64,000 nucleotides of DNA from Sulfurimonas sp. (lineage in GTDB: Bacteria; Campylobacterota; Campylobacteria; Campylobacterales; Sulfurimonadaceae): positions 1,849,405-1,913,404 of the forward strand of contig NZ_CP093397.1 in the NCBI RefSeq assembly GCF_029027585.1. Reading direction: 5' to 3'. Each line of letters starts with the position of its first letter. Position 1 is the first letter of the stretch. This document shows, piece after piece, positions 3,925 to 25,136 of this stretch. A program made the translations under genes and the position numbers. The notes beneath the pieces were generated by a model that had not been told where the DNA came from, searched no databases, and saw only the letters and a program-made list of their open reading frames with translations.

Positions 3925-5115
3925 CTAAGTAAGAGATGTTGTTTGGTAAAGTTTCATAAGTTCAAGATAGAAATCTGCTTCAGTATGCTCTTTTAAAAGC
4001 CCTTCAACAGGTAAAATATCATAGTATAACTTTTCAAGATTTTTAAATCTATTTGGAAAAATATGAGATAATATTCGTGCTGAAATTTCTTTTCTCATAA
4101 GCATAGTTGGTGGTAAAATACCTAACTCTAAGAGTTCTAAGATTGAATCAGAATGGTAAGATATTTGATGATGTTGACCATGGGGACAAATATTTTTACT
4201 TACAAGAGTTGTACATTTGTCACAATAGACATATTCGCTTGCTATGGTTATCTCTATTTCTATCCCTATTACTCTGTCAATGATAGATTTGTTTGAGTTA
4301 CAATCATAAAACATACCAAGTCCGGCATGGTTTATACCTATCGTAAGTCTATCACAACCATAGTTTTTTGCAACTATTGCATCTATAATTATTTCATTAT
4401 AACCTGCAAAAATATAACTATTTTCTAAGGGAACAATAACGACATGATTTTTTGTTAAAAAGTTACTAATAAAATAATCTAAAGATTCTTTTCGTATATC
4501 GTAAGATAGATTTGATTCAGTATATGAGCGTAGTAAAAATATGACTAAAAGGTCAGTGTTTTCAAGAGCTTGTCTGATTAATCTTTCATGTGCACGATGT
4601 AAAGGATTTGCTGCCATAACGATGGCTGTTGTATGTTTGGCATCTATGCGATGTTTAGCATTATTTATAATTTCTTGATTAGTATTTAAAGGTTTATTTA
4701 AAAGTATATACTCACCACTTACAGCTAAAGAACCGAGTCTGTTTAAAGTAGTCATAACACCTGGATGACTTGTATCATCTGTACCATATATCTGTTTGAT
4801 TCTTTCACTTTTATCTATCTTAAAAACCTCTTCAACTATTAAAGTTGCAAATGGTTCTTGGTTAAAAAGTATTTCAAGCTCATCTCCAGTTTTTAAAGAT
4901 TTTAAGACTTGGGCATTCATCTTACCTGAAGGAGCAAGTATGAAAGGAAATGGAAAAGTTTTTCCATTAATTAGACCACTTTTAAGAACCTTTTTACTTC
5001 TCTGTGCATTCATCAAGGATGTTGCAGGGGCAAGTAAGCCATTCTTTAAAAGTTCCAGAGCAGAAGCTGCTTCACTGTCTATAAGAAGAGTTTTATTTTT
5101 TCTTGACGATATCAT
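3925..5115 (-). CDS. ATP-sulfurylase-like protein with altered sulfate site
   Basis: The 396-residue protein has the overall layout of dissimilatory-type sulfate adenylyltransferase (Sat): an N-terminal PUA-like part, then the nucleotidyl-transferase domain with NPLHRAHE at residues 170-177, and a zinc-type set Cys298, Cys301, Cys310, His312. The ATP-binding HxxH is intact. The usual QxRNP motif reads MAANP, so the sulfate-binding Gln and Arg are absent. The usual GRDHAG reads GINHAG, which loses another conserved Arg. Normal ATP sulfurylase activity is therefore doubtful. It resembles Cj1609 of C. jejuni in position (between the HP1021-type regulator and pgpA). The start overlaps the upstream regulator gene by 23 bases, which suggests coupled translation. 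It may be an adenylyltransferase with another substrate; this is inference. Confidence 0.75.
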   Translation of the reverse strand: MISSRKNKTLLIDSEAASALELLKNGLLAPATSLMNAQRSKKVLKSGLINGKTFPFPFILAPSGKMNAQVLKSLKTGDELEILFNQEPFATLIVEEVFKIDKSERIKQIYGTDDTSHPGVMTTLNRLGSLAVSGEYILLNKPLNTNQEIINNAKHRIDAKHTTAIVMAANPLHRAHERLIRQALENTDLLVIFLLRSYTESNLSYDIRKESLDYFISNFLTKNHVVIVPLENSYIFAGYNEIIIDAIVAKNYGCDRLTIGINHAGLGMFYDCNSNKSIIDRVIGIEIEITIASEYVYCDKCTTLVSKNICPHGQHHQISYHSDSILELLELGILPPTMLMRKEISARILSHIFPNRFKNLEKLYYDILPVEGLLKEHTEADFYLELMKLYQTTSLT

Positions 5116-5992
5116 ATTTTTTTCGTTTTTCCCATAAACTTTTTCTACTTATTCCTAATCTTTTAGATAGTTCAATATCAGGAAATTTATATTGGTAATT
5201 TAAAACGATATATTTAACATAATCTTCAATCGGAAGTATATCACCTTGGTCAAAAATATTATTTTCACTTTTAATTTCCAAAACTCTATATTCTACATTC
5301 TCTATCTTATCTGTACTTGAAACAATAACTTTTTTGTTAGAAATAAGGGAACAGAAGTTCTTTCTTTCCCCTTTTTTAAGAGTTTGATAGTCAGTTATGT
5401 AGATAATAGCATCTTGGTTTAACGATTCTAACTCATTTAAAGCTTTTTGGTCAGTCAAAGTTATGAAGTGAATAGGTAAATCTTTTTCATATGCATGCTC
5501 AAACGCAAAAGCATCTGAGTATTTTTGAAATGATGATGATATAAATATAGGAAGGTCTATCGTGTTATGGTCATGTTTATGCGTTACTGATGAAAAAGAG
5601 TGTGTTAAGTATTTTTTGTAAGCTTCATCTCTCTTTTTTAGTTTTTCATAATCTTGGTAATGGTTTATCTTTCTGATGAGTTCTTCAATCATAAAAGGCT
5701 TTAAAATATAGTCTTTTGCTCCAGCACTAAGTGGTTTTGAAACTGTATCGTTTGAAATATATGAAACCATTAAAATTATTATGGCTTTTTTAAATGTTTC
5801 TATTACTGGGTTGAAATCTTGCCCATTGATGTTTGTAGAAAGTAAAACAACATCATAGTCCTTATTTTTAATTGCATCTCTTGTTGAAGTACACATATCA
5901 CAAATATGCCCTAACTCACCTAGTTTAGTAGCTATACTTTGTGCTAAATAAACTTCATTTTCTATAATTAGTATTTTCAAATTTTTGTCCAA
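5093..5992 (-). CDS. HP1021-type atypical orphan response regulator
   Basis: The protein has an N-terminal receiver-like domain (about residues 5-120) and a C-terminal Fis-like helix-turn-helix (about 272-292, with LSKRLGISRKSLWEKRKK). The size (299 residues), domain order and position directly after ispDF match HP1021 of Helicobacter pylori and Cj1608 of C. jejuni. Those proteins act as transcription and replication-origin regulators that respond to redox state without a partner kinase. The receiver here is atypical in the same way: the phosphate-accepting Asp is replaced by Ser52 (VVLLSTNI) and the first acidic pair is reduced (IIENE), while Lys98 of LKPF remains. Phosphorylation is therefore not expected. 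Two cysteines at 31 and 34 could matter for redox sensing, but this is speculative. The gene overlaps ispDF by 16 bases. Confidence 0.88.
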   Translation of the reverse strand: MDKNLKILIIENEVYLAQSIATKLGELGHICDMCTSTRDAIKNKDYDVVLLSTNINGQDFNPVIETFKKAIIILMVSYISNDTVSKPLSAGAKDYILKPFMIEELIRKINHYQDYEKLKKRDEAYKKYLTHSFSSVTHKHDHNTIDLPIFISSSFQKYSDAFAFEHAYEKDLPIHFITLTDQKALNELESLNQDAIIYITDYQTLKKGERKNFCSLISNKKVIVSSTDKIENVEYRVLEIKSENNIFDQGDILPIEDYVKYIVLNYQYKFPDIELSKRLGISRKSLWEKRKKYDIVKKK

Positions 5993-7245: not shown

Positions 7246-8646
<1,401 letters not shown>

Positions 8647-8658
8647 ATAAACTTGTTT

Positions 8659-8685
8659 TAAATAAGACAAAAATTGTCTTATTTA
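8659..8685 (+). terminator. Perfect 12-bp inverted repeat after thiC
   Basis: Twelve bases (8659-8670) pair perfectly with 8674-8685 around a 3-base loop. The arm sequence is AAATAAGACAA plus one more pair. The hairpin starts 13 bases after the thiC stop and 40 bases before mrp. It is AT-rich and its right arm is T-rich, so a weak rho-independent terminator is the simplest reading. The perfect symmetry and the possible -10 box (TATGAT, 8684-8689) next to it also allow an operator for mrp. Confidence 0.5.
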
Positions 8686-8724
8686 TGATAGTATGCGAAA
8701 ATAAATAAAAATAAGGAAGAATGA

Positions 8725-9834
8725 ATGACTAATGAAATAGTAAATTCAGCACTTTCAAAGGTTATGTATCCAGGTTTTACTAAAGATATTGTAACTTTTG
8801 GTTTTGTAAATAGTATAAAAATAGATGGTAATGATGTTAGCTTTAATGTAGCAATCACATCAAGTGCTCCAGAAGTTGCACAACAAATCATTGATGAATC
8901 TACAAAAGAACTTAAAGCTGTTGGTGCTTCAAATGTCACCTGTAATATAAATGCTCCAAAAATGCCAGATGCCGCTCCAGCACCAAAAAGTAAAAATATT
9001 GCTCCACAAGTTAAAAACTTTTTAATGGTTAGTTCTGGTAAAGGTGGAGTTGGTAAATCAACAACTTCTGTAAATGTTGCCATTGCTCTTGCTGCGCAAG
9101 GTAAAAAAGTTGGTCTATTAGATGCAGATATCTATGGTCCAAATATCCCTCGTATGATGGGTCTTGATGGTATTCGTCCTGAAGTAAATGGAAATAAAGT
9201 TCTTCCTCTAAAAGCTTATGGTCTTGAAGTTATGTCTATGGGTTCACTTATGGAAGAAGGTCAGTCACTTATGTGGCGTGGTGCTATGATTATGAAGGCA
9301 ATCGAGCAGTTCTTAAGAGATATTCTTTGGAGTGAGTTAGATGTTTTAGTGATAGATATGCCTCCTGGAACAGGTGACGCTCAGCTTACTTTAGCTCAAA
9401 GTGTTCCTGTAACTGCTGGTCTTGTTGTTACAACTCCTCAAGCAGTTTCTATTGATGATTCTCGTCGTTCATTAGATATGTTCAAAAAACTTAATATTCC
9501 TATCGCTGGAATCGTTGAAAATATGAGTGGTTTTATTGCTCCAGATACTGGTGTTGAGTATGATATCTTTGGTAAAGGAACTTCAGGTCCAATGGCTGCG
9601 GAGTTTGACACAGAAATAATTGCAGAGATTCCAATAGAGCCTTCTATTCGTGAGGGTGGAGATACAGGTCAGCCTATCACTTTTGTTTCTCCGTCTAGTG
9701 AGACCTCAAAAAGATATGCTAAAGCTGCTGAGTCTATTTGGGCTACTATTGAAGCGGTAAATGCTGATGGTGGTGCTACAAATGAAAGTGTTCAACCAAC
9801 CACACCACCAGGTGTAAGTGCTTGTAGCGTATAA
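8725..9834 (+). CDS. mrp: Mrp/ApbC-type iron-sulfur cluster carrier P-loop ATPase
   Basis: Mrp proteins carry iron-sulfur clusters and hand them to target enzymes, such as the quinone and respiratory proteins of this cell. An N-terminal MIP18-like domain (about residues 1-80) precedes the P-loop ATPase with the deviant Walker A SSGKGGVGKST near 103-113, the switch region LLDADIYGPNIPR and VLVIDMPPGTGD. The usual CxxC cluster motif after ENMS is missing: residues 265-276 read ENMSGFIAPDTG. The protein ends with a single cysteine (SACSV). Cluster binding must therefore differ from that in E. coli ApbC or need other ligands. The ATG at 8725 follows AAGGAAG. In Campylobacter, mrp is likewise close to ispDF. 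A terminator hairpin follows the stop. Confidence 0.93.
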   Translation: MTNEIVNSALSKVMYPGFTKDIVTFGFVNSIKIDGNDVSFNVAITSSAPEVAQQIIDESTKELKAVGASNVTCNINAPKMPDAAPAPKSKNIAPQVKNFLMVSSGKGGVGKSTTSVNVAIALAAQGKKVGLLDADIYGPNIPRMMGLDGIRPEVNGNKVLPLKAYGLEVMSMGSLMEEGQSLMWRGAMIMKAIEQFLRDILWSELDVLVIDMPPGTGDAQLTLAQSVPVTAGLVVTTPQAVSIDDSRRSLDMFKKLNIPIAGIVENMSGFIAPDTGVEYDIFGKGTSGPMAAEFDTEIIAEIPIEPSIREGGDTGQPITFVSPSSETSKRYAKAAESIWATIEAVNADGGATNESVQPTTPPGVSACSV

Positions 9835-9841
9835 ACTTTTT

Positions 9842-9862
9842 GTAACCCCGTTTTGGGGTTAC
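9842..9862. terminator. Terminator hairpin between mrp and the diguanylate cyclase gene
   Basis: A perfect 8-bp stem (GTAACCCC / GGGGTTAC) with a 5-base loop starts 7 bases after the mrp stop. It contains four G-C pairs in a row, which stands out in this AT-rich sequence, and a T-rich stretch follows on the plus strand. It lies between the ends of two convergent genes and may serve both. Confidence 0.8.
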
Positions 9863-9868
9863 TTCTAT

Positions 9869-11719
9869 CTAACGAACATCCTTACCTTCTGACATTTCTT
9901 TTTTATACTTAACTATTTTATTTCTACCAGTTGTTTTTGCAACATAAAGAGCAGTATCTGCTAACTTGATACACTTCCAAATAGTATCTGCATCTTCATT
10001 AAACATAGAGATACCAATACTTATAGTTTTTTGCATCGCGTCACCTGCTCCAACATCAAAACTCAAATCACCAAAAGCACGATGAATTTTTCTTGCAACC
10101 TCTAAAGTTCCTTCGACAGTTGCATTATCTAAAATAATAACAAACTCTTCTCCACCATATCGTATAGCTAAGTCAGATTCACGAATATTTTCTTTAAGAA
10201 CCTTAGCAATTTCAACAATTACCATATCGCCAACATCATGTCCATAAGTATCATTTACTTTTTTAAAGAAGTCTATATCTATCATCATTATGGAGTAAAT
10301 TTCTTTTTTTCTACCAACCTGACTCATAATTCGTTCAATGACTTCTTCTAAAAATCTTCTATTGTTAAGCCCTGTCATTGAATCTCTTCGAGATGTGTCT
10401 TTTAATTTTCCCATAAGAATATGAGAACTAATCACAGGTTTTGCAGCTTCAAGATAGTGTCTTATTCTTGAGATATAAGTATTTTTATCGTTGATTTCTT
10501 CTTTATCTTTTCCAATAATTGATATGATTAAAGAAATCTCACCATTGATTGCAAATGAAAAACATAGATAGTTTTCTTTTTCCTTTTTGCATGATTGACA
10601 TAGGTCAGGAAACTCACTAGAGAGAGTTATACTTTTTGTTCTATAAGCTCTACATAAAGAAGCATCTTCTTTCACTCCTTCTTTACAAATTAAAATATCA
10701 TCATTTGTGTTATAGTGAAGTTTTCTTGTATTTGTAGTATTGTTTACCTCATAAAGTGCAAAATTTACAATGTTGTATTTACTTTTAATAATATTTACTA
10801 AACGCATATAAACATCAAATTTTGTTGCATCTAGTTCTATCGTTTTTTTGAATTTATACACATCTGATAGCTCATTTATGATAATTTTTGATTGTTCTAG
10901 CGGGTTGTCATTTGACATATTCATTTGAGGGATTATAGTTCCTAGATTTTGCTTGATATTTCCAAAAGCATCTTGCATCTTTGAAAATAGCGTGTTCATA
11001 TGACTGACAATATCTTTAGCTTCTCCATCTACACTAGTTTCAAATCTATGTGTAAAATCTCCACCATAAGCTTTTTGTATTCCATCTTGAAGGTTTGAAA
11101 AAAGTTTTATATACGGTGAAATATAGTAGTTTAAAAGAAATAAAACAATAAACAAAAAGACTATATTTATTCCAAGAATTTTCAGTATTGTAAACATACC
11201 ACTTGTTCGCATCTCACTAATATCAAACTCCATACTTATAACACCTAGAGTATCTCCAATCTTGACATCATGGCAACTCAAACAGTTTGTATTAGCATGA
11301 TTTACAGTTGCTTTGTAAGGTATAGAAACTCTAAGTAAAATTTCATTTGCATCTTCTATAATCTTTTTTACACTGCTTCCACTTCTGAGAACTTCTTTAT
11401 CTATAGCATCTCTAACTGTTTCAAAGTTCATACCTTCGCCATATTGTTTTATGACATTTTCACTTCTTACAAGCCATAAAGATTTTACTACATCACCTCT
11501 TGAGATTTGATTTAAAAAGTATGACCTATTGTCCATCATGCCATTTATCATATGAGCAGTTAGTCCATCTTTTACAATAGTAGCGGCAAGTTTTGACTTT
11601 TCCATAGCACTTTTGATGCTGTAATCACGAAAGTTTAAAGATATATTGATAATTGTTGCAGTTGTTAGAGCAAGTAGCATTAGAGCTACAATCAGAAGAA
11701 GTTTTGACTTTGTTTGCAT
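9869..11719 (-). CDS. Membrane diguanylate cyclase with periplasmic c-type heme motif
   Basis: This sensor makes the second messenger cyclic di-GMP. A transmembrane helix at about residues 7-28 is followed by a periplasmic Tll0287-like region that ends in CLSCH (Cys146, Cys149, His150), a covalent heme c motif. A second helix lies at about 178-200 and then a linker of HAMP type. A cytoplasmic GAF-like region follows; it contains five cysteines, including a CQSC pair. The C-terminal GGDEF domain has GGEEF at 522-526 and an RESD product-inhibition site at 513-516, so it should be active and limited by its own product. The heme suggests control by oxygen, nitric oxide or redox state. It stands alone between mrp and glmS. 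Confidence 0.9.
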   Translation of the reverse strand: MQTKSKLLLIVALMLLALTTATIINISLNFRDYSIKSAMEKSKLAATIVKDGLTAHMINGMMDNRSYFLNQISRGDVVKSLWLVRSENVIKQYGEGMNFETVRDAIDKEVLRSGSSVKKIIEDANEILLRVSIPYKATVNHANTNCLSCHDVKIGDTLGVISMEFDISEMRTSGMFTILKILGINIVFLFIVLFLLNYYISPYIKLFSNLQDGIQKAYGGDFTHRFETSVDGEAKDIVSHMNTLFSKMQDAFGNIKQNLGTIIPQMNMSNDNPLEQSKIIINELSDVYKFKKTIELDATKFDVYMRLVNIIKSKYNIVNFALYEVNNTTNTRKLHYNTNDDILICKEGVKEDASLCRAYRTKSITLSSEFPDLCQSCKKEKENYLCFSFAINGEISLIISIIGKDKEEINDKNTYISRIRHYLEAAKPVISSHILMGKLKDTSRRDSMTGLNNRRFLEEVIERIMSQVGRKKEIYSIMMIDIDFFKKVNDTYGHDVGDMVIVEIAKVLKENIRESDLAIRYGGEEFVIILDNATVEGTLEVARKIHRAFGDLSFDVGAGDAMQKTISIGISMFNEDADTIWKCIKLADTALYVAKTTGRNKIVKYKKEMSEGKDVR

Positions 11720-11804
11720 ATAAAATCACTTGTGTTGAGATTTTTGAAATTAATTAATCATCATAACAAAGAATATGTTAAGTTTGTATAAAGTGTTTAA
11801 AATG

Positions 11805-13619
11805 TCACTCTACCGTAACACTTTTAGCTAAATTTCGTGGCATATCTACATCATTTCCCAGTCTTACAGAAATCTCTAAAGAAAGCAGTTGAACAACAAC
11901 CATCATCTCAAAAAACTCTAACATATAATCTTTACATTTTGAGATAGCTATAAAATCATCAGCTTTATCAAACTCTTTTGAACTAATAGCACAGATAGTA
12001 GAATCTCTAGCACTTAACTCTTCTACATTACTTTTTGATTTTTCATAATGCAAGTGTTCTGGAAGTAGAGCAATAGTAAAAAGTTCAGGGTCCGCAAGTG
12101 CGATAGGACCATGTTTCATCTCTCCAGAAGGATAACCTTCAGCATGAAGGTATGAAATTTCTTTTAGTTTTAATGCTCCTTCAAGTGCTAGTGGATAGAA
12201 TATATCTCGGCCAATAAAGAAAAAACCATGCCCGTGAAGGTATCGTTTTGAGAGTCTTTTTAGTTTTTCATGCATCTCATCAGTTACTTTAACAGATGCT
12301 GGAACTTCTCTTAAGAGGGAGATTTGTCTTGAAATTTCACTAGATGCAAGAGTGTTTTTGATCTTAGCAATATAAAGACTCATCATCCAAAATATTGTAA
12401 CTTGAGTTGCAAATGCTTTTGTAGATGCCACACCTTTCTCAATCCCAGCGCGGGTTAAAATAGTTGCATCTGCTAGTCTTACCATTGAAGAATTGTCAAC
12501 ATTACAAATAACTAAAGTTCTTAAACCAGCATTTTTTGCCATTTTCAATGTTTCTAAAGTGTCTGCTGTTTCTCCACTTTGTGATATCACAACAAAAAGA
12601 GTATCTTTTGCCATTATGGGCTCTCTGTATCTGAATTCACTTGCTATCTCAACAGAAGTTCTGATTTTTGCGTATCTTTCAAAAAGGTATGAAGCAGTTA
12701 ATGCTGAATGGTAAGAAGTTCCACAAGCGCAAAGTTTTATCTCATTAATACTAGCAAAAAAATCTTTATCAAGTTCATCAAAAATAATCTCATCATCGTT
12801 AAGTCGTCCCATCAAAGTATCTGAGATAACATCACCTTGTTCATATATCTCTTTTTCCATAAAAAATCTAAATCCATCTTTTTGGGCAGAGAGTTTGTTT
12901 TGAGAAAGTTTGCTGAAAATAGCCTCTTTTTGTTTTGCATCTTTATCTAAAATTACAATTTCATCAGGTCTAACATAACCATAATCACCATCTTCAAAAT
13001 AGTTTACTTCTTTTGCTTTACCAATAAGAGGAGTATCAGAAGATGCAAAATATTTTTCACCTTCTTCATTAATACCAAAAAGCATAGGTGAACCATGTTT
13101 TGCAAAAAAGATAGTTTTAGGTTCGGACTTTGTAGTAAGTAAAATAGCATAGGCACCATCTAACTCATTTATGGTTTTACTAAAAGCTTCAAAAGCATCT
13201 GCGCTAGATTTTAAGTTTTTTTCAAACTGATGAACTATGACTTCTGTGTCAGTTTGGCTTAAAAATTTTACTCCACTATATATAAGTTCTTTTTTTAACT
13301 CTGCATAATTTTCTATAATGCCATTATGAACAACATAAGAACTCTCGCCAAGATGGGGATGTGCATTTAGTTCAGTTGGTTTTCCATGTGTTGCCCATCT
13401 AGTATGACCAATCCCAACAGCAAAACCCTCTGTTGTAAAATCTTTTGTTTTTTCTTCAAGGTTTATAAGTTTTCCAATGGCCTTGTAGTTTGAAAATTCC
13501 CCATTTTGTAAAACTGCGATACCTGCAGAGTCATAACCTCTATACTCTAACTCTTTGAGTCCATCAAGTAAAATTTCTTTAGTATTTTTTTCGCCTATGT
13601 ATCCAACAATTCCACACAT
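11805..13619 (-). CDS. glmS: Glutamine--fructose-6-phosphate aminotransferase
   Basis: GlmS makes glucosamine-6-phosphate from fructose-6-phosphate and glutamine, the first step towards UDP-GlcNAc for peptidoglycan, lipopolysaccharide and the amino sugars of the glycan locus in this window. The protein starts MCGIVGYIG, so Cys2 becomes the N-terminal nucleophile that releases ammonia. The glutaminase domain (about 1-230) contains the GHTRWATHG segment. Two SIS sugar-isomerase domains follow, and the C-terminus DMPRNLAKSVTVE is the typical ending. The length of 604 residues is normal. The ATG overlaps the glnD stop by one base (TAATG), so the two are probably translated together, linking nitrogen sensing with amino-sugar synthesis. 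Confidence 0.97.
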   Translation of the reverse strand: MCGIVGYIGEKNTKEILLDGLKELEYRGYDSAGIAVLQNGEFSNYKAIGKLINLEEKTKDFTTEGFAVGIGHTRWATHGKPTELNAHPHLGESSYVVHNGIIENYAELKKELIYSGVKFLSQTDTEVIVHQFEKNLKSSADAFEAFSKTINELDGAYAILLTTKSEPKTIFFAKHGSPMLFGINEEGEKYFASSDTPLIGKAKEVNYFEDGDYGYVRPDEIVILDKDAKQKEAIFSKLSQNKLSAQKDGFRFFMEKEIYEQGDVISDTLMGRLNDDEIIFDELDKDFFASINEIKLCACGTSYHSALTASYLFERYAKIRTSVEIASEFRYREPIMAKDTLFVVISQSGETADTLETLKMAKNAGLRTLVICNVDNSSMVRLADATILTRAGIEKGVASTKAFATQVTIFWMMSLYIAKIKNTLASSEISRQISLLREVPASVKVTDEMHEKLKRLSKRYLHGHGFFFIGRDIFYPLALEGALKLKEISYLHAEGYPSGEMKHGPIALADPELFTIALLPEHLHYEKSKSNVEELSARDSTICAISSKEFDKADDFIAISKCKDYMLEFFEMMVVVQLLSLEISVRLGNDVDMPRNLAKSVTVE

Positions 13620-16133
13620 TATTTTGAGTCCTTAGTTAGTAGTTCATAAATTTTATCGACATTATTGCATATATCATTTTGTTTTTCCATTAAGAAGCTA
13701 TCGCGAACTTTATGTTTAGTTGAGTGGATTTTTGCTGTTACAATATTTATGTCAAGTTTCTCAAATATGTCCATTATGTATGCTAAAAGACCGATTTGAT
13801 TTTTAGTATTTACCTTTACCTCTGCATGTGTAAGTGAATGTTCACAATCAATAATAATTTCTTCTCTTTTGATAGTTATCTCTTTTAGTTTAACTATCCT
13901 TTTCATGTCAAAAGCTTTTTTAACTAACTCTTGAACTTCTTTCAGTTCATCTCCATCTACATTTTTAATAAACTCTATCTTAAAATATTTTAAATCATCA
14001 AAAAGTGTAAATATCTCCATAGATGCAACATCAAGATGACGGAGTGTTGCTAAAAGATAACCAACATTCAGAGGAACTCTTCTATATATTTCAATACTTA
14101 AAGAGTTTTCTCTATGAATAAGGTAAGAATAATCTGAGGTGTTTTTTGCTTTTTTTGCAATTCTTACAAGGTCAAGTATCGTGTGTTTAAAGAAAAAGAG
14201 ATTTGATTCTACACGAAGAAGTTTTGCTTGAAGATCTTTTGGAAGTTCTTTAAATTCTTTAGAATTTTTCACTCTTTTTTCTATGGCAATTCTCTTAGAA
14301 GCATCTGTGATTCGGTCACTATTTTGTGAAACTTCTAAAGCACTTGTATATAAATCATGAAGTAATTTAGAATTAAATGAGTTATATGTAGTTTCACTAA
14401 CACCGTTTATATCGGCATAAGTTAAAATATAAAGTAGTCTTAAATTTTTTATATCTTTAACACTTGACATAAATTTATAAAGAGTTTTTTCGTTATAAAT
14501 ATTTTCTTTAAATGCAACATTACTCATCAAAACATGATACTTAACCAATAAAATTGCACGCTCAATCAATGCTTGACTTAGATGAAGTTTAGTCGCAAAA
14601 GGAAGTATAAGTTTTGCTCCAACTTCGCTATGGTCTTGTTTTCTGCCTTTTCCTGTGTCATGAAGCAGTACAACTATTTTTAGTAAAAGTTTTTCATCAA
14701 TAGATAGTTCATTGTGTAACTCTTGAATAAAAGGCTCTTTTATGTTTTCCAACGCTTGAATTGATTTAATAGAATGAATATCAACAGGATAATGATGATA
14801 ACCATCAAACTGAGGAAGATGAAGAACTTTTCTAAAACTTGAAAAAGAGTAGATGCAAGATACCAGCGTCCCAAAAAAGTTTTAAAAAGCAGTAAATATT
14901 GTCTTTTTTCAAAAGGTCTTTTAATAGCATATATGTTTTATTTGACAGTGGGTATGGTATCTTTGTATAGGTTAACTGATTTAAAAATCCTGCATCAAAA
15001 TGGTAAGACTTATCAGGTATTGAAATTAATATTTCTAAAACATCGTTGATCGGTTGAATTTTTAGATTGAATGAAGCGTATAGTCTATCATCTAAAAGAT
15101 AGATGCCTTTACTTAGTCTATTGTTTTTAAACTTTTTTACATAACTCATATTGGTAATATATGGCTTAACCATTTTTTTAACAAAGATTTGTGTGAAGTT
15201 GTTTATACGCCATTGTGCTTGAAGGACTTTTGTGAGCATTTTAAGTTCAGTTTTAAAGCCTAGCATCTTAGAAACTTGAGGCATGAGTTCCAATATAAGT
15301 TTATCTTCTTGTTTATGTGCAATTAGGTGAAGCGCACTTCTAACTCGATATAAGAGTTCTAATGCTATTCGATACTCTTTATACTCTTCATCAGAAAAAA
15401 GTGTTTGACTTAAATCTCGTAAGTTATCAACGCCATAAATAGTTTGAGCTACCCAGATAAGTAATTGTGTATCTCTAAGACCACCAACACTCTCTTTTAT
15501 GTTTGGTTGCATAGAAGTTGGGTATTTTTTGCGTCTAATTTGCGCTTCTTCAACTTTTGCCAAGATAAACTCTTTTTGTTCAAAGAGTCTGATTTTGTTT
15601 AGTTCTTTTTGCGTAGAGTGCCAAGTAAATGGTGAGCCTGTTATTAGGCGAGATTCCATTAGAGAGGTTTTTATAGTTATATCTTCAGTAGATGCTTTAA
15701 ATAAATCACTTGTTTCGTGGACTCTATGCCCTAGTTTTAAACCAGAATCAAGAGCAAGATAAAAAAGTTTTTCTATGATGAGTTGAGTATTAAAGCCTTC
15801 AACATCTTCATAAACTATGAGAAGGTCAATATCACTGTGAACACAAAGTTGCTCTCTTCCATAACTCCCAAGTGCGACAATCGCTATAGGAATAGAACTT
15901 CTCATAGGCAAATAGTTTCCAAAAACTCGCCTTAAGATAGTTTTATACATTAAAGATATGATAGAGTCCAGTTTTTTTGTATGTTTAACTAAAAAGTCTT
16001 TACCCTGAGAGTTTTCAAAAAGCTCAGGAAGAGAGTCTTTATAGCTCTCTATGTAGGTCTTGAAAAGTTTTGAAAGCTCAAAATCTGAACCATTTTTTTC
16101 TATGATGTCTTCTATTTGTAATAATATATCCAA
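13619..16133 (-). pseudogene. glnD: PII uridylyltransferase GlnD, interrupted by a one-base frameshift
   Basis: GlnD adds and removes UMP on the PII protein according to glutamine level. The N-terminal nucleotidyltransferase domain (GSYGREQLCVHSDIDLL) is read from ATG at 16133. That frame goes off course after FWDAGILH and stops at 14832. The next frame already reads FSSFRKVLHLPQFDGYHHYP, a normal GlnD segment before the HD domain, and continues through LLHDTGKGRKQDHS and the C-terminal ACT region to 13619. The two halves join perfectly if the five-A run at 14842-14846 (plus strand) had one A fewer. The repaired protein would have 837 residues, a usual size. The HD-domain His of the DIHS segment lies upstream of any start available to the second half, so two independent genes are unlikely. 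A sequencing error is possible. Confidence 0.88.
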
Positions 16134-16169
16134 AAGTTTATGCCTAATAATGTTTTTATGATTATAAGA

Positions 16170-19368: not shown

Positions 19369-20592
19369 ATGGAGTATAAAGAGTTAGATGTAAAAAGTGT
19401 TATATCGTATCTAAAAAATGTTGATGAGGTTATGGACTACTTTGGTAGTGATGACTTAGAAGCAATAGAGATAGGCGATGGTAATTTAAATTATGTCTAT
19501 CTAGTTAGCTCAATCTCAAACCCAAAAAAAGCACTTATAGTTAAACAGGCTGTTCCTTACCTTAGATGCGTAGGTGAAGAGTTTGCTCTTTCACGCCAAA
19601 GAATGACTTTTGAAATAAGAGCACTTTTAAAATTTAAAAATATTGTAACTAGTTTTATTCCTAAAATCTATCATTCTAGTGAAGATATGTCCATAGTAGT
19701 GATGGAGTATCTTGATTCTCATATTATTTTAAGAGATGGACTTATGGCAAAGCTTAAATATCTGAATTTTAGTGAGCATATTTCTACCTACTTAGCAAAC
19801 ACACTTTTTAAAACTTCATCTCTTTGTTTAGACTCAACGCAAAAAAGAGAACTTGTAGATGAGTTTAATGCAAATAGTGAGCTTTGTAAACTTACGGAAG
19901 ACTTTGTATTTACTTTTGCTTTTATGCAAAATGAAACTAATGATGAAGAGAATGTAAAAAACAATCCACTAGCAAAAAAGCTTTTCTCAGACATGGAGTT
20001 TAAGGCAAAAGTATTAGATTTAAAATATAAATTTATGACAGCTTCAGATGCTTTGATTCATGGAGATTTACATACTGGTTCGGTGATGTTAAATGACAAA
20101 GAAACATTTGTTATAGACCCAGAGTTTGCTTTTGTTGGACCTTTTGGTTTTGATATTGGCGCACTTTTGGCAAATCTTGTAAATAACTATATTCATCATA
20201 GTGTTGTAACAAAAGATGAGGATTTTAAAAAATACCTTCTTCAAATGATAAAAGAAGTTTTAGAACTTTTTAATAAGAAATTTTTGAAACTATGGGAAGT
20301 TCAGAGTGATTCTGCTTTACTTATAGATGGATACATAGATGCTAATACAGCCTCAAAATATAGAGAAAAGTTTTTAAAAGAGATACTAAGAGATAGCGTA
20401 GGCTTTGCAGGTTGTAAGATGGCAAGACGAGTTTTTGGTGTTGCTGGTGTTGCTGAGATTCGAGGTATAGAAAATGAAAAATTACGCTTAGATGCTGAGG
20501 CTTTAGTTTTAAAAATAGCTAGAGAATTTGTTATGAAATATGAAAAAATAGATAGTATTGAAGATATATTGGAGATAATAATTGCAGGGTAA
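19369..20592 (+). CDS. mtnK: S-methyl-5-thioribose kinase
   Basis: MtnK phosphorylates methylthioribose, the sugar left when MTA nucleosidase removes adenine. The 407-residue protein has the kinase-like fold of the APH family: IGDGNLNYVYLV as the nucleotide loop near residue 36, a Lys in ALIVKQAVPYLR, the catalytic loop LIHGDLHTGSVM and the metal-binding FVIDPEFAFVGPFGFDIG. The paired Arg residues of the substrate site are plausible in the C-terminal part (GCKMARRVFGVAGV). It follows metK by 16 bases with an AGGTAGAG ribosome site and overlaps mtnA by 11 bases, so the three genes form one operon. Confidence 0.93.
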   Translation: MEYKELDVKSVISYLKNVDEVMDYFGSDDLEAIEIGDGNLNYVYLVSSISNPKKALIVKQAVPYLRCVGEEFALSRQRMTFEIRALLKFKNIVTSFIPKIYHSSEDMSIVVMEYLDSHIILRDGLMAKLKYLNFSEHISTYLANTLFKTSSLCLDSTQKRELVDEFNANSELCKLTEDFVFTFAFMQNETNDEENVKNNPLAKKLFSDMEFKAKVLDLKYKFMTASDALIHGDLHTGSVMLNDKETFVIDPEFAFVGPFGFDIGALLANLVNNYIHHSVVTKDEDFKKYLLQMIKEVLELFNKKFLKLWEVQSDSALLIDGYIDANTASKYREKFLKEILRDSVGFAGCKMARRVFGVAGVAEIRGIENEKLRLDAEALVLKIAREFVMKYEKIDSIEDILEIIIAG

Positions 20593-21649
20593 ATATAGAG
20601 CCTTATGGCTAAATGAAGAGAATTTTTTAGAAGTTATCGACCAGAGAAAACTTCCCTTTGAGTATGTAACAAAAGTTTTAAAAACTACTGATGAAATTGT
20701 TGAAGCGATAAAAGATATGACAGTTCGTGGAGCTGGGGTTATAGGAAGTGTTGCAGCTTTTGGCATCTACATTGCATCTATGGAAGTTAAAAGTTACGAT
20801 GAGTTAAAAGAAAAATCAAAATTTATTAGAGATTCTCGTCCAACTGCAGTAAACCTTATGTGGGCAGTTGATAAGATGATGGAGCATTTAAAAAATTCAA
20901 CTAACTTAGTATTAGATGCTAAAAAATATGCCATAGAACTAAATGATGAGGAAGCAAAAGAAAGCCAAAATATCGCAAAACATGGTGCTGACATAATTGA
21001 AGAAATTTTAAAGAAAAAAAGTAAAACTAAGATAAATATTTTAACTCACTGTAATGCTGGTTGGCTGGCAGTCATAGATGAAGGAACTGCTTTAGCTCCA
21101 ATCTATGAAGCACAAAAAAGAGGGATAGATGTTCATGTTTGGGTAGATGAAACAAGACCTAGAAACCAAGGTGCATCTTTAACTGCTTGGGAGCTAACTC
21201 AAAGCAAAGTAAATCATACAATTATTGCAGATAATACAGGCGGTCATCTTATGCAAATAGGCGAAGTTGATATGGTTATCACAGGTGCTGATAGAGTAAG
21301 TGCAAATGGCGATGTGGCAAATAAAATAGGAACATATTTAAAGGCGCTTGCTGCAAAAGATAATGGCGTTCCTTTTTATGTAGCTATCCCAGCATCTACC
21401 TTTGACTTGGATATAAGAGATGGAATGAAAGAGATTCCTATAGAGCTAAGAAGTGAAGATGAAGTTAAGTATATGAAAGGTATAGATGCTTCTGGAGTTG
21501 TAAGAGAAGTTTTAATCACTCCAAAAGATTCACCTGCAATAAATTATGGTTTTGATGTTACCCCTGCCAGACTTATCACTGGGTTGATTACAGACAAAGG
21601 TTTATGTGAAGCAGATTTTGATAAAATAAGTGAAAAGTTTAATACTTAA
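20582..21649 (+). CDS. mtnA: Methylthioribose-1-phosphate isomerase
   Basis: MtnA converts methylthioribose-1-phosphate to methylthioribulose-1-phosphate. The 355-residue protein is an eIF2B-alpha-like isomerase with MTVRGAGVIGSVAAFG, TAVNLMWAVDKM, the catalytic Cys in ILTHCNAGWLA, VDETRPRNQGASLTAWEL, and the catalytic Asp in VITGADRVSANGDVANKIG. The start is a TTG at 20582 inside the end of mtnK, which gives the family opening QGKYRALWLNEENF. The usual next genes of the methionine salvage route (mtnB, mtnC, mtnD) are absent from the window. Instead an aldolase fusion follows at 23175, after two inserted genes. Confidence 0.95.
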   Translation: MQGKYRALWLNEENFLEVIDQRKLPFEYVTKVLKTTDEIVEAIKDMTVRGAGVIGSVAAFGIYIASMEVKSYDELKEKSKFIRDSRPTAVNLMWAVDKMMEHLKNSTNLVLDAKKYAIELNDEEAKESQNIAKHGADIIEEILKKKSKTKINILTHCNAGWLAVIDEGTALAPIYEAQKRGIDVHVWVDETRPRNQGASLTAWELTQSKVNHTIIADNTGGHLMQIGEVDMVITGADRVSANGDVANKIGTYLKALAAKDNGVPFYVAIPASTFDLDIRDGMKEIPIELRSEDEVKYMKGIDASGVVREVLITPKDSPAINYGFDVTPARLITGLITDKGLCEADFDKISEKFNT

Positions 21650-21670: not shown

Positions 21671-22627
21671 ATGGATAATCATTTAACAGAGATAGAGATA
21701 AAAGATTTTAAATGCTTCAAAGATTTTAAGGCTGATGGGTTTAAGAGAGTTAATCTAATTGGTGGGAAAAATAATGTTGGGAAGACTGCTTTTATGGAGG
21801 CTTGTTATGTTAATGTGAGAGCTTTAAATATAAAAAGTTTTATTGGTGCTCTACATGGCATTAAATTTATGCGAGAAAATTTGAATATACTTGCCGGAGA
21901 AAATGCTAATTCGAAAAAATATATTGAACAAAGCAATAAAATATTTACAAAATCTAATGTTAATTTAGCTTTCTTCGAAATAGAAGATATGGAAGGAGTT
22001 AAACAATATATCTTTGATTTTAATAAACAATATATAAAAGTGAATATTAATGATTTTTCATATGAGACAAGTGATTTTGAGAATATTGATTTTATTGATA
22101 ATTTTGGATTATCAAATAATGATATTGTTAGTAAATATTCAGCAATACAAAAGAAGGATGAAGAGAATTTTTTAAATAATATTCTTAATAAATTTGATGA
22201 AAGAATTACAGCTTTCAAGGTAATTAATGAAACACCTCAATGTCAAATTGGAAAGAATTATTTTGAAATCACTGAATTTGGGGATGGTACAAGACATCTT
22301 ATTTCAATAGTTACTGCACTTTATAGTTGTGAAAATGGGTATCTATTTATAGATGAAATTGATAATGGAATCCATTATTCTAAACTTGATGAAATTTGGA
22401 CAAGTATATTAGAAACCTCTAAAAAATTAAATGTTCAAGTATTTGCAACAACTCATTCAAAAGAGTGTATAGAATCTTATGCTAGAGTTGCTAAAAAATT
22501 ATATGATAAAGATATTGCTTTTATAGAACTTGGTAAAAATAAAAATAATGAGTTAGACTCTATCGTTATGGATAGTGAGATGTTTTTAAGACACATTGAT
22601 ATGGGTAATGAGGTTAGAGGATGGTAA
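21671..22627 (+). CDS. AAA family ATPase, OLD/ABC-like, candidate defence ATPase
   Basis: The 318-residue protein begins with an SMC/RecF-like strand (TEIEIKDFKCFKDF) and Walker A GGKNNVGKT at 31-39. The C-terminal half has a signature-like FGDGTRHLISI, Walker B YLFIDEIDNGIHYS (acidic pair near 228-229) and an H-loop FATTHSKE (His262). This is the layout of OLD-type and PARIS AriA-type ATPases. The long inserted middle segment (about 60-200) is AT-rich and lacks known motifs. It overlaps the following TOPRIM-like gene by 7 bases, so the two are probably one functional unit. It sits between mtnA and the aldolase gene, where an ATPase of this kind is not needed for metabolism. A defence role is inferred from this architecture. 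Confidence 0.82.
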   Translation: MDNHLTEIEIKDFKCFKDFKADGFKRVNLIGGKNNVGKTAFMEACYVNVRALNIKSFIGALHGIKFMRENLNILAGENANSKKYIEQSNKIFTKSNVNLAFFEIEDMEGVKQYIFDFNKQYIKVNINDFSYETSDFENIDFIDNFGLSNNDIVSKYSAIQKKDEENFLNNILNKFDERITAFKVINETPQCQIGKNYFEITEFGDGTRHLISIVTALYSCENGYLFIDEIDNGIHYSKLDEIWTSILETSKKLNVQVFATTHSKECIESYARVAKKLYDKDIAFIELGKNKNNELDSIVMDSEMFLRHIDMGNEVRGW

Positions 22628-23154
22628 TTATTGCTTATGAGGGCAAAACTGATAAAGAGTTTTTAAATTCTCTTTTAAGTACTTATCAGTTACCGCAAAA
22701 TGAAGTCACTTATTTTAATTTTAAAGGCAAAGATAACATACTAAATGGCGCTCATTCATATTATAATGAGATTGAGAAAAAGTATATTGATAAAATAAAT
22801 AAAATATTGATTGTTGTAGATGCTGATAATGAGAAAGACCCTAATCCAAATAGAGGATATGAAGCTTCAGAGGAAGCATTAAAAAATTTAATAAAAGACT
22901 TGGATTTCAATATTGATATAGAATATCACATAATGTGTGATTGTAATAAAGAAGGAAATTTGGAATCTTTTTTACTCTCTGTTCTTGATGATACACAACA
23001 AGAATGTATAAAAACTTTTAAAGAGTGCTATAAATATGAATTAACGGATAAATGGGCATATAATACTTTTTACAAACAAAAGAAACACCCTTTCGATTTT
23101 TCACATGAAAATTTCAATGAATTAAAGAAAAAATTACAAAATTTATTTAACTAA
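22621..23154 (+). CDS. TOPRIM-like protein (DUF3226-like), partner of the AAA ATPase
   Basis: The 177-residue protein opens with VIIAYEGKTDKEFLNSLL, in which the Glu is the first acidic residue of a TOPRIM fold. The second signature is ILIVVDADNEKDPN, the Asp-x-Asp motif. Further on, CDCNKEGNLESFLLSVL resembles the last conserved block of DUF3226/OLD-nuclease TOPRIM proteins. These residues bind metal in TOPRIM nucleases. The gene overlaps the ATPase gene by 7 bases. The pair therefore looks like a split OLD-family nuclease or a relative of PARIS (AriA plus AriB). The family name is my recognition by motif and not a database hit. Confidence 0.7.
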   Translation: MVIIAYEGKTDKEFLNSLLSTYQLPQNEVTYFNFKGKDNILNGAHSYYNEIEKKYIDKINKILIVVDADNEKDPNPNRGYEASEEALKNLIKDLDFNIDIEYHIMCDCNKEGNLESFLLSVLDDTQQECIKTFKECYKYELTDKWAYNTFYKQKKHPFDFSHENFNELKKKLQNLFN

Positions 23155-23174: not shown

Positions 23175-25136
23175 ATGAAAAGTTTATGGAATAATAACGA
23201 GGCAAAAAAATATAAAACAGATTTAGACTTAAGAGTTTATACCTCAAGACTTTTAGGACAAGAAAGCTCTTTAGTTTTGCATGGTGGTGGAAATACTTCT
23301 GTAAAATCGAGCGCTACAAATCTTTTCGGTGATGAAGAAGAGATACTTTATGTAAAGGGAAGTGGTTGGGACTTAGCAACTATTGAAGCTGAAGGTTTTG
23401 CTCCTGTAAAGATGGGTATGCTTCTTAAAATGGCGAAGTTAGAAAAGTTGAACGATCCAGATATGGTTAAATATCAACGCCTTGCTATGACAAATCCATC
23501 TGCTCCAAACCCTTCTGTTGAAGCTATTCTTCATGCTATTATCCCTTTTAAATTTGTTGATCATACACACACAGATGCTGTTGTGACTATTACAAATACA
23601 AAAAATGGCGAAGATAGAATTAAAGAGCTTTATGGAGAAAAGGTTTTAATTATTCCTTATATCATGCCAGGATTTGTTCTTGCAAAACTAATTTTTGATA
23701 TGACTAGAGATGTTGATTGGTCTAAATTAGAAGGTATGGTTTTGATGAATCATGGTCTTTTCACTTTTAATGACAATGCACAAAAGTCTTATGAAAAAAC
23801 TATAGAGTTAGTTGATAAGGCTGAAAAATATTTAACTAATAATGGTGCAGTTATAGATGTAACTGATGATAAAACTACTATTGGGATTTTAGAATTAGCA
23901 AATATAAGACGAGAAGTATCAAAACTTAAAAAACATGCAACTATTTCAATACTAAATGATTCAAATGAAGCTATAAACTTTTCAAAACAAGATATTCAAA
24001 AGATAGCAATTCAGGGTCCTTTAACTCCTGATCATGTTATAAGAACAAAAAGAGTTCCAGTAATATTAAGAGATGGTGCTAAGATGGATTTAGCTTATTT
24101 CGTTGAGGATTATAAAAAGTATTTTGAAGAAAATAAAACTGATGAAACACTTTTAAATCCAGCTCCAAACTTTGCAATACTAAAAAATAATGGAAGCCTC
24201 TCTTTTGGTAAAAATGCAAAAGAAGCTAACATCATCAAGGATATAAATGAGCATTCGTTTGAAGCGATTTTAAAAGCTGAAAAACTTGGAGGTTATAAAG
24301 CTTTAAGTGCAGCAAAAATATTTGAAGTTGAGTATTGGTCGCTAGAGCAAGCAAAACTAAAAAAGAGTGGAAATTCTCTTGAATTTGCTGGAAAAGTTGC
24401 ACTTGTAACGGGTGGAGCAAGTGGCATCGGTCACTCTATAGCACAGATGCTAAATGCTAAAGGTGCAGCAGTAGTTGTTCTTGATATAAACCCTGAGGTA
24501 GAGCAGATATTTAATAAGGCTGATGCTAAAGGTGTGAAGTGCGATTTAACTTCAAGTTCTGATATAAAAAGTGCTATTGAAATAGCTGTGAAGAGTTTTG
24601 GTGGGATAGATATAGTTGTAAGTAATGCAGGTATTTTTACTCCAAGTGAAAACCTTGATACCTTAAGTGATGAAAATTGGGATAAAAGTATGAGTATAAA
24701 TTTAACTTCTCATCAAAAACTTATAAAACAAACAGCACCATTTTTAAAATTAGGTATAGACGCTTCTATTGTGATGGTAGCATCTAAGAACTTTCCAGCA
24801 CCAGGAAAAGGAGCGGCTGCTTACTCTGTTGCAAAAGCAGGTCAAACTCAATTAGCAAGAATTGCGGCACTTGAACTTGGTGAATATGGTGTTAGAGTAA
24901 ATACTCTGCATCCTCATGCTGTTTTTGATACTGCAATTTGGACAGATGAAGTTTTAGCCAATCGTGCAAAAGCTTATGGAATGAGTGTTGAAGAATATAA
25001 AACAAATAATGTTCTTAAGACTGAAATATGTTCTAATGATGTAGCAGAGTTAGTCTGTGCAATGGCTGGAAAGTCATTTGCTAAAACAACAGGTGCGCAA
25101 GTTGCCATAGATGGTGGAAGTGATAGGATTATATAA
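23175..25136 (+). CDS. Class II aldolase / short-chain dehydrogenase fusion (RhaEW-like)
   Basis: The 653-residue protein fuses two enzymes. Residues about 1-380 are a class II (AraD/FucA-type) aldolase with HGGGNTSVK near 36-44, a catalytic-type Glu116 (NPSVEAILH) and zinc ligands His130 and His132 (VDHTHTDAV), plus a third His in LMNHGLF. Residues about 405-653 are a Rossmann dehydrogenase with TGGASGIG, NAGIF and the YSVAKAG pair Tyr550-Lys554. RhaEW splits rhamnulose-1-phosphate into DHAP and lactaldehyde and oxidises the latter. Here, after mtnK and mtnA, the likely substrate is methylthioribulose-1-phosphate or 5-deoxyribulose-1-phosphate, giving DHAP and an aldehyde that the second domain would reduce or oxidise. 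The substrate is inferred from context. Confidence 0.85.
   Translation: MKSLWNNNEAKKYKTDLDLRVYTSRLLGQESSLVLHGGGNTSVKSSATNLFGDEEEILYVKGSGWDLATIEAEGFAPVKMGMLLKMAKLEKLNDPDMVKYQRLAMTNPSAPNPSVEAILHAIIPFKFVDHTHTDAVVTITNTKNGEDRIKELYGEKVLIIPYIMPGFVLAKLIFDMTRDVDWSKLEGMVLMNHGLFTFNDNAQKSYEKTIELVDKAEKYLTNNGAVIDVTDDKTTIGILELANIRREVSKLKKHATISILNDSNEAINFSKQDIQKIAIQGPLTPDHVIRTKRVPVILRDGAKMDLAYFVEDYKKYFEENKTDETLLNPAPNFAILKNNGSLSFGKNAKEANIIKDINEHSFEAILKAEKLGGYKALSAAKIFEVEYWSLEQAKLKKSGNSLEFAGKVALVTGGASGIGHSIAQMLNAKGAAVVVLDINPEVEQIFNKADAKGVKCDLTSSSDIKSAIEIAVKSFGGIDIVVSNAGIFTPSENLDTLSDENWDKSMSINLTSHQKLIKQTAPFLKLGIDASIVMVASKNFPAPGKGAAAYSVAKAGQTQLARIAALELGEYGVRVNTLHPHAVFDTAIWTDEVLANRAKAYGMSVEEYKTNNVLKTEICSNDVAELVCAMAGKSFAKTTGAQVAIDGGSDRII

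What the first reader, a model, noticed from the sequence alone, without database searches (positions are those of the whole stretch)
21671..23154. AAA ATPase plus TOPRIM-like pair inserted in a metabolic operon: candidate anti-phage system
Seen: an OLD/AriA-like ATPase (Walker A, Walker B, H-loop) overlaps by 7 bases a small protein with EGKTD and VDADNEKD motifs typical of TOPRIM folds. The pair separates mtnA from the aldolase fusion. Known: OLD nucleases, Gabija and PARIS combine ABC/AAA ATPases with TOPRIM effectors. Inference: this is a split two-gene relative, possibly of a type not yet tested.
Basis: partly seen in the sequence, partly recalled or inferred. Interest (0 to 1): 0.7.

Follow-up and report, generated by a model that had tools for sequence, protein, structure and literature searches.

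The report
Mosaic AbiL-like two-gene phage-defence pair
Two overlapping genes, an ATPase and a small TOPRIM nuclease-like protein, sit inside a metabolic operon and look like a known type of anti-phage suicide system, and comparison with relatives shows that their presumed sensor and effector parts have been exchanged like cassettes by recombination.

Summary
Gene A (21671-22627, 318 aa) is an ABC/SMC-type ATPase. Gene B (22621-23154, 177 aa) is a DUF3226 TOPRIM protein. They overlap by exactly 7 bases and separate mtnA from the aldolase-dehydrogenase fusion. The nearest defence models are AbiLi/PDC-M38A for A and PDC-M38B for B, so the pair belongs to a named kind (AbiL-like) rather than an untested one.

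It is not housekeeping. It occurs in 18 of 135 genomes of the genus. The same mtnA junction is empty in six relatives and holds unrelated genes in four. Related pairs lie at other operon junctions (aldolase|kinase, kinase|mqnE, hisH|hisA, nos genes).

The unexpected result is modularity. The middle of A (aa 49-200) is hypervariable between conserved Walker-A and H-loop blocks. A's last ~40 residues co-vary with B, while the middle does not; 15 further pairs repeat this. Sharp DNA breakpoints just after the H-loop, different combinations at one orthologous site, and tandem arrays with identical DNA blocks show recombination.

Best model: A senses through its middle, docks B through its tail, and an infection signal frees or activates B. 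Defence, the phage trigger and B's substrate are inferred; nothing was assayed.

The parts
21671..22627 (+). Gene A: ABC/SMC-type AAA ATPase, 318 aa, AbiLi/PDC-M38A-like
   Evidence: AAA_15 1.4e-16; AbiLi 6.8e-47, PDC-M38A 1.6e-46; predicted fold (pLDDT 71.5) matches ABC, SMC and retron/Septu ATPases
21671..21814 (+). Conserved N block (aa 1-48, Walker A), first homology block
   Evidence: mean 72% pairwise identity in 28 pairs; exact DNA tracts of 131 and 137 nt between neighbouring array copies in G070
21815..22270 (+). Hypervariable middle cassette (aa 49-200), inferred sensor part
   Evidence: mean 23% pairwise identity; does not track B (rho -0.01, 251/500 permutations); hold-out rho 0.07
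22271..22507 (+). Conserved core (aa 201-279: signature-like FGDG, Walker B, H-loop), second homology block and exchange joint
   Evidence: mean 59% identity; breakpoints at nt 813-829 of A, at the end of this block
22508..22624 (+). C-terminal tail of A (aa 280-318), travels with B; inferred docking part
   Evidence: rho 0.53 with B, 0/500 permutations; hold-out 0.69, 0/1000
22621..23154 (+). Gene B: DUF3226 TOPRIM protein, 177 aa, PDC-M38B-like, inferred nuclease effector
   Evidence: DUF3226 2.5e-13; PDC-M38B 6.8e-11; model pLDDT 90.2 nearest to PH0156 and OLD TOPRIM domains; E7, D67, D69 invariant in 43 of 43
22621..22627 (+). 7-base A/B overlap (ATGGTAA); a GAGG about ten bases upstream of the B start could serve as its ribosome-binding site
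   Evidence: sequence; overlap recurs in most relatives
20582..21649 (+). mtnA, left neighbour; its tail is found as a fossil beside the pair in G166 and G117
   Evidence: IF-2B 7.4e-62; fossil E 2e-5 in G166
23175..25136 (+). Class II aldolase-dehydrogenase fusion, right neighbour
   Evidence: Aldolase_II and short-chain dehydrogenase domains; directly follows mtnA in six relatives without the pair

Best explanation
The pair is an AbiL/PDC-M38-like two-gene defence system carried as a passenger inside a housekeeping operon. A is an ATPase whose hypervariable middle (aa 49-200) recognises an infection signal. Its conserved Walker-A and H-loop parts run the ATP cycle, and its C-terminal ~40 residues hold B. 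B is a TOPRIM metal-dependent nuclease, silent while bound or unlicensed. When the middle of A meets its trigger, A changes shape and frees or activates B, which cleaves a nucleic acid (RNA or DNA, unknown) and stops growth before phage are made. New sensor-effector combinations arise by recombination through three conserved DNA blocks (A N block, A H-loop block, B 3' end), helped by tandem arrays. Shown here: genes, family matches, predicted folds, invariant catalytic motifs, sporadic distribution, different junctions, mosaic structure and breakpoints. Inferred: defence function, sensing by the middle, docking by the tail, nuclease activity and substrate, and the order of events.
For: Library matches to AbiLi/PDC-M38A and PDC-M38B. 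TOPRIM fold of B and ABC-type fold of A with retron/Septu ATPases among the top matches. Catalytic residues invariant in 43 pairs. Present in 18 of 135 genus genomes; the mtnA junction is empty in six and holds other cargo in four. The tail of A tracks B (rho 0.53, 0/500; hold-out 0.69, 0/1000; within the genus 0.79, 1/1000) while the middle does not (-0.01, 0.07, -0.03). Breakpoints: G137 shares A with G117 (N-to-core 89-93% nt) but tail and B with G016 (84-86% nt), chi-square 270.7, 0/2000; window/G040/G039 155.5, 0/2000. At the mtnA site three combinations occur: window (mid 4, B 2), G040 (mid 4, B 3), G039 (mid 9, B 3). Array copies share exact 131-137 nt tracts in the N block and 75-101 nt in B although their middles differ. 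Literature: F. nucleatum AbiLii inhibits E. coli growth (PMC3985639); in PARIS a hexameric ATPase sequesters a TOPRIM tRNase and releases it on a phage trigger (PMC12409363, PMC11455837).
Against: No phage, toxicity or nuclease data exist for this pair. B matches AbiLii itself only weakly (3.1e-4, partial). In PMC3985639, AbiLi of F. nucleatum did not neutralise AbiLii, which does not fit simple sequestration. The middle of A is poorly predicted (pLDDT under 50 at 72-103), so a sensor fold is not shown. The pair lies in metabolic operons, not in a defence island, and no close copy was found in viral contigs or plasmids. In the pooled set of 43, middle and B do correlate weakly (0.23, 0/500), as expected if distant groups are pooled.
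Confidence: 0.6

Rival explanations
1. The pair is a toxin-antitoxin-like or anti-plasmid/anti-mobile-element module rather than an anti-phage one. The same A-B mechanism is used, but the trigger is incoming DNA or loss of the module.
For: AbiLii from F. nucleatum is toxic in E. coli (PMC3985639). TOPRIM proteins also serve anti-plasmid Wadjet (JetD; PMC10568477). The pair is small and found at several sites.
Against: An addiction module would not obviously need a hypervariable, exchangeable middle. AbiLi did not neutralise AbiLii in PMC3985639. Library matches are to abortive-infection models.
Confidence: 0.18
2. The pair is a host housekeeping or regulatory module linked to SAM / methylthioadenosine salvage, in whose operon it lies (comparable to the archaeal OLD-family ATPase Cran1, reported to act in the cell cycle, PMC12796447).
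For: In the genus at least eight of the pairs lie in or beside the same group of metabolic genes, co-directional with them.
Against: Most relatives with that operon lack the pair. Others have it at hisH|hisA or among nos genes. The middle of A is hypervariable and mosaic.
Confidence: 0.07
3. The mosaic pattern has no functional meaning: the middle of A is weakly constrained and the conserved blocks simply recombine because they are alike.
For: The homology blocks coincide with ATPase motifs that are conserved anyway, and middle identities are near the noise level for distant pairs.
Against: Middle cassettes are under purifying constraint where recent (G137/G117: 90% aa identity, about 18 aa changes against 21 silent codon changes). 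The tail follows B, as a docking part should, with hold-out confirmation.
Confidence: 0.2

Closest known systems
AbiL (abiLi/abiLii) abortive infection system of Lactococcus and its relatives
   Same: Two-gene operon of an ATPase and a TOPRIM-type protein; A matches AbiLi at 6.8e-47
   Different: B matches AbiLii only weakly (3.1e-4); the pair sits in housekeeping operons of Campylobacterota-like genomes and is mosaic, which I did not find described for AbiL
PADLOC candidate PDC-M38 (A and B)
   Same: Both proteins match (1.6e-46 and 6.8e-11); diverse relatives do too
   Different: A candidate in a model library; I found no paper describing its mechanism
PARIS (AriA/AriB)
   Same: Separate ABC ATPase sensor and TOPRIM effector genes; works-like model
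   Different: AriA score is far weaker (8.3e-20) and no AriB model was hit by B
OLD family nucleases, Gabija GajA
   Same: ATPase and TOPRIM parts; B fold matches OLD TOPRIM domains (Z 9.8-8.5)
   Different: OLD/GajA carry both parts in one chain; here they are two genes
DUF3226 proteins (fold match: PH0156, PDB 2p62)
   Same: B belongs to Pfam DUF3226 (2.5e-13); its best solved fold match is PH0156 (Z 10.9)
   Different: DUF3226 is a family of unknown function in Pfam; that PH0156 itself is a DUF3226 member was not tested here

Membership tests
AbiL | AbiLi-type ATPase | tested here: met
   AbiLi PDLC02336 6.8e-47
AbiL | AbiLii-type partner | tested here: inconclusive
   AbiLii 3.1e-4, partial, for window B; 4.8e-7 for a distant relative
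AbiL | Abortive infection on phage challenge | not testable with these tools
   needs experiment
PDC-M38 | PDC-M38A and PDC-M38B side by side | tested here: met
   1.6e-46 and 6.8e-11 for overlapping genes
PARIS | AriB (its own TOPRIM family) next to AriA | tested here: inconclusive
   A hits AriA at 8.3e-20, but no AriB model among B's seven hits up to E 10; HMM filters may hide weak matches
OLD / Gabija GajA | ATPase and TOPRIM in one polypeptide | tested here: not met
   two separate genes overlapping by 7 bases
TOPRIM superfamily (B) | TOPRIM fold with E and DxD acidic residues | tested here: met
   OLD TOPRIM matches Z 9.8-8.5; E7, D67, D69 invariant 43/43
ABC/SMC-type ATPase (A) | Walker A, signature-like motif, Walker B, H-loop | tested here: met
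   G37, K38, T39, G204, G206, D228, E229, H262 invariant 43/43; fold matches

The most novel reading that the evidence does not exclude
A combinatorial innate-immune system. Tandem ATPase/TOPRIM pairs exchange hypervariable sensor cassettes and tail-plus-effector cassettes through three conserved DNA blocks, so that new sensor-effector pairings are assembled and spread as passengers of housekeeping operons, in the manner of type I restriction specificity shuffling.
Probability: 0.45. Interest if true: 0.78.

Novelty: new variant of a known kind. Interest (0 to 1): 0.6.

Why it matters
If the middle of A senses and the tail docks the effector, natural recombination has already run the swap experiment. 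The cassette borders give direct, testable chimeras to map which part of an AbiL-like ATPase sees the phage and which part controls the TOPRIM nuclease; I found no published trigger or substrate for AbiL in the papers searched. It would also show how two-gene defence systems diversify without a dedicated mobile element, by travelling inside housekeeping operons.

Tried and rejected
Chance ORFs: rejected (family matches, conserved pairs). Housekeeping gene at a fixed place: rejected. Carriage by known viruses or plasmids: two scans of viral contigs gave no relative; B has no match in plasmids; A has only distant matches under 60% identity in plasmids and two partial ones in phage records. Foldseek alone put lumazine synthase-like Rossmann folds first for B at weak E-values; the second look with VIA-align ranked PH0156 and OLD TOPRIM domains first. 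Sequence searches of PDB found no meaningful relative of B. AriA/AriB chains were not seen among the listed PDB fold matches. Literature searches for DUF3226 with ATPase (0 papers), PDC-M38 and modular or hypervariable ATPase-TOPRIM defence found no description of this shuffling in titles or abstracts listed; the library lacks most subscription papers. A repeat search failed on a strand error and was replaced by a script.

Full report
WHAT IS THERE. Two ORFs lie at 21671-22627 and 22621-23154 on the + strand, overlapping by seven bases, between mtnA (20582-21649) and an aldolase-dehydrogenase fusion (23175-25136). A is an AAA_15/ABC-type ATPase of 318 aa; B is a DUF3226 protein of 177 aa. In the defence library A is nearest to AbiLi (6.8e-47) and PDC-M38A (1.6e-46), then AriA (8.3e-20); B is nearest to PDC-M38B (6.8e-11), with AbiLii at 3.1e-4. 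The predicted fold of B (pLDDT 90.2) is closest to PH0156, Z 10.9 over 164 residues, and to OLD TOPRIM domains, Z 9.8 to 8.5. The predicted fold of A (pLDDT 71.5) is an ABC-type head; Foldseek's top matches include retron and Septu ATPases. Motif residues of both proteins are invariant in 43 related pairs.

SITE AND DISTRIBUTION. A profile of A found it in 18 of 135 genomes of the genus and, at a stricter limit, in 24 of 298 of the class. At the mtnA|aldolase junction, six relatives have the two genes directly adjacent, four have other cargo (an HD-GYP sensor in three, one of these beside only a remnant of mtnA; a phosphate-binding protein plus chemoreceptor in one), and G039 and G040 have the pair. 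Other pairs lie at aldolase|kinase (G166, G117), kinase|mqnE (G042, G016), just upstream of mqnE without the kinase (G137), upstream of the aldolase (G008), and hisH|hisA (G143, G146), co-directional with the genes downstream. In G166 and G117 the pair is preceded by a fossil of the mtnA C-terminus (VCEADFDRITEKF in G166), although no mtnA was found in those (incomplete) assemblies. So this form of the pair probably came from an mtnA-adjacent place and took a scrap of flank along. Whether it moved or mtnA was lost beside it is not settled.

MOSAIC STRUCTURE. In 28 pairs mean pairwise identity is 72% for A residues 1-48, 23% for 49-200, 59% for 201-279, 37% for 280-318, and 43% for B. The tail of A correlates with B (rho 0.53; 0 of 500 label permutations reach it), the middle does not (-0.01; 251/500). 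I then fetched further loci and repeated the test on 15 pairs not used in that analysis: tail-B 0.69 (0/1000), middle-B 0.07 (221/1000). Within the genus: 0.79 (1/1000) and -0.03 (524/1000). In the pooled set of 43 pairs, middle-B is 0.23 (0/500), against 0.69 for tail-B, as pooling of distant groups would give.

BREAKPOINTS. G137 and G117 share A at 89-93% DNA identity from the start through the core, then fall to 48% in the tail and 57% in B, while G137 and G016 are 54% in the middle and 84-86% in tail and B. The switch is at nt 828-829 of A in the alignment (max chi-square 270.7, 0/2000). For G040 against the window and G039 it is at nt 813-816 (155.5, 0/2000). Both lie at or just after the H-loop block. 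A second border lies near nt 140-150, after Walker A. At the orthologous mtnA site three genomes carry three combinations of middle and B.

ARRAYS. One genome of another family in the order (G070) has 21 matches to A, with three or four overlapping A-B pairs in a row on three contigs, one of them among nos genes. Neighbouring copies share exact tracts of 131 and 137 nt in the N block, up to 45 nt in the H-loop block and 75-101 nt in B, although their middles differ. This fits recent gene conversion or unequal exchange between copies.

HOW IT PROBABLY WORKS. PARIS shows one way for such a pair: the ATPase holds the TOPRIM nuclease and a phage protein releases it to cut tRNA (PMC12409363, PMC11455837). 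F. nucleatum AbiLii is toxic in E. coli, but AbiLi did not neutralise it (PMC3985639), so licensing rather than plain sequestration may apply. The co-variation of A's tail with B points to the tail as the docking part, and the independent, hypervariable middle to the sensor. These assignments are inference from evolution, not shown by experiment.

VERDICT. A real, AbiL/PDC-M38-like pair, a known kind by composition, with a modular, recombining architecture that I did not find described in the papers I could search.

Noticed in passing
L090 (G070:C84) 7515-16142: Three tandem A-B pairs and a fourth diverged pair lie among what look like nos (nitrous oxide reductase) genes, with a PIN-domain-like ORF and another ATPase ORF with a small downstream gene (4022-5640) also in the cluster.
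   Followed up: partly
L068 7420-9732, L082 5174-7489, L084 5789-8107: An HD-GYP-type sensor protein of about 770 aa occupies the mtnA|aldolase junction (in L084 kinase|aldolase beside an mtnA remnant) in three relatives; L070 has a phosphate-binding-like protein and a chemoreceptor there, so the junction accepts varied cargo. Named from sequence appearance, no family search run.
   Followed up: partly
L121 8413-8478 and L123 8405-8458 (- strand): Short fossils of the mtnA C-terminus directly upstream of the pair in genomes where no mtnA was found.
   Followed up: yes
L085 2951-3097: A lone remnant of A (aa 1-49, 86% identical) between kinase and mqnE in G043, a decayed copy.
   Followed up: no
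L105 7019-7896: Between aldolase and kinase in G011 lies an ORF resembling REP-associated transposases, flanked by repeated GGAACCCGTACTTCAGTGCGGGC-like sequences.
   Followed up: no
L124 7474-9122 and L125 6949-8543: Diverged pairs at the same hisH|hisA junction in two genomes.
   Followed up: partly
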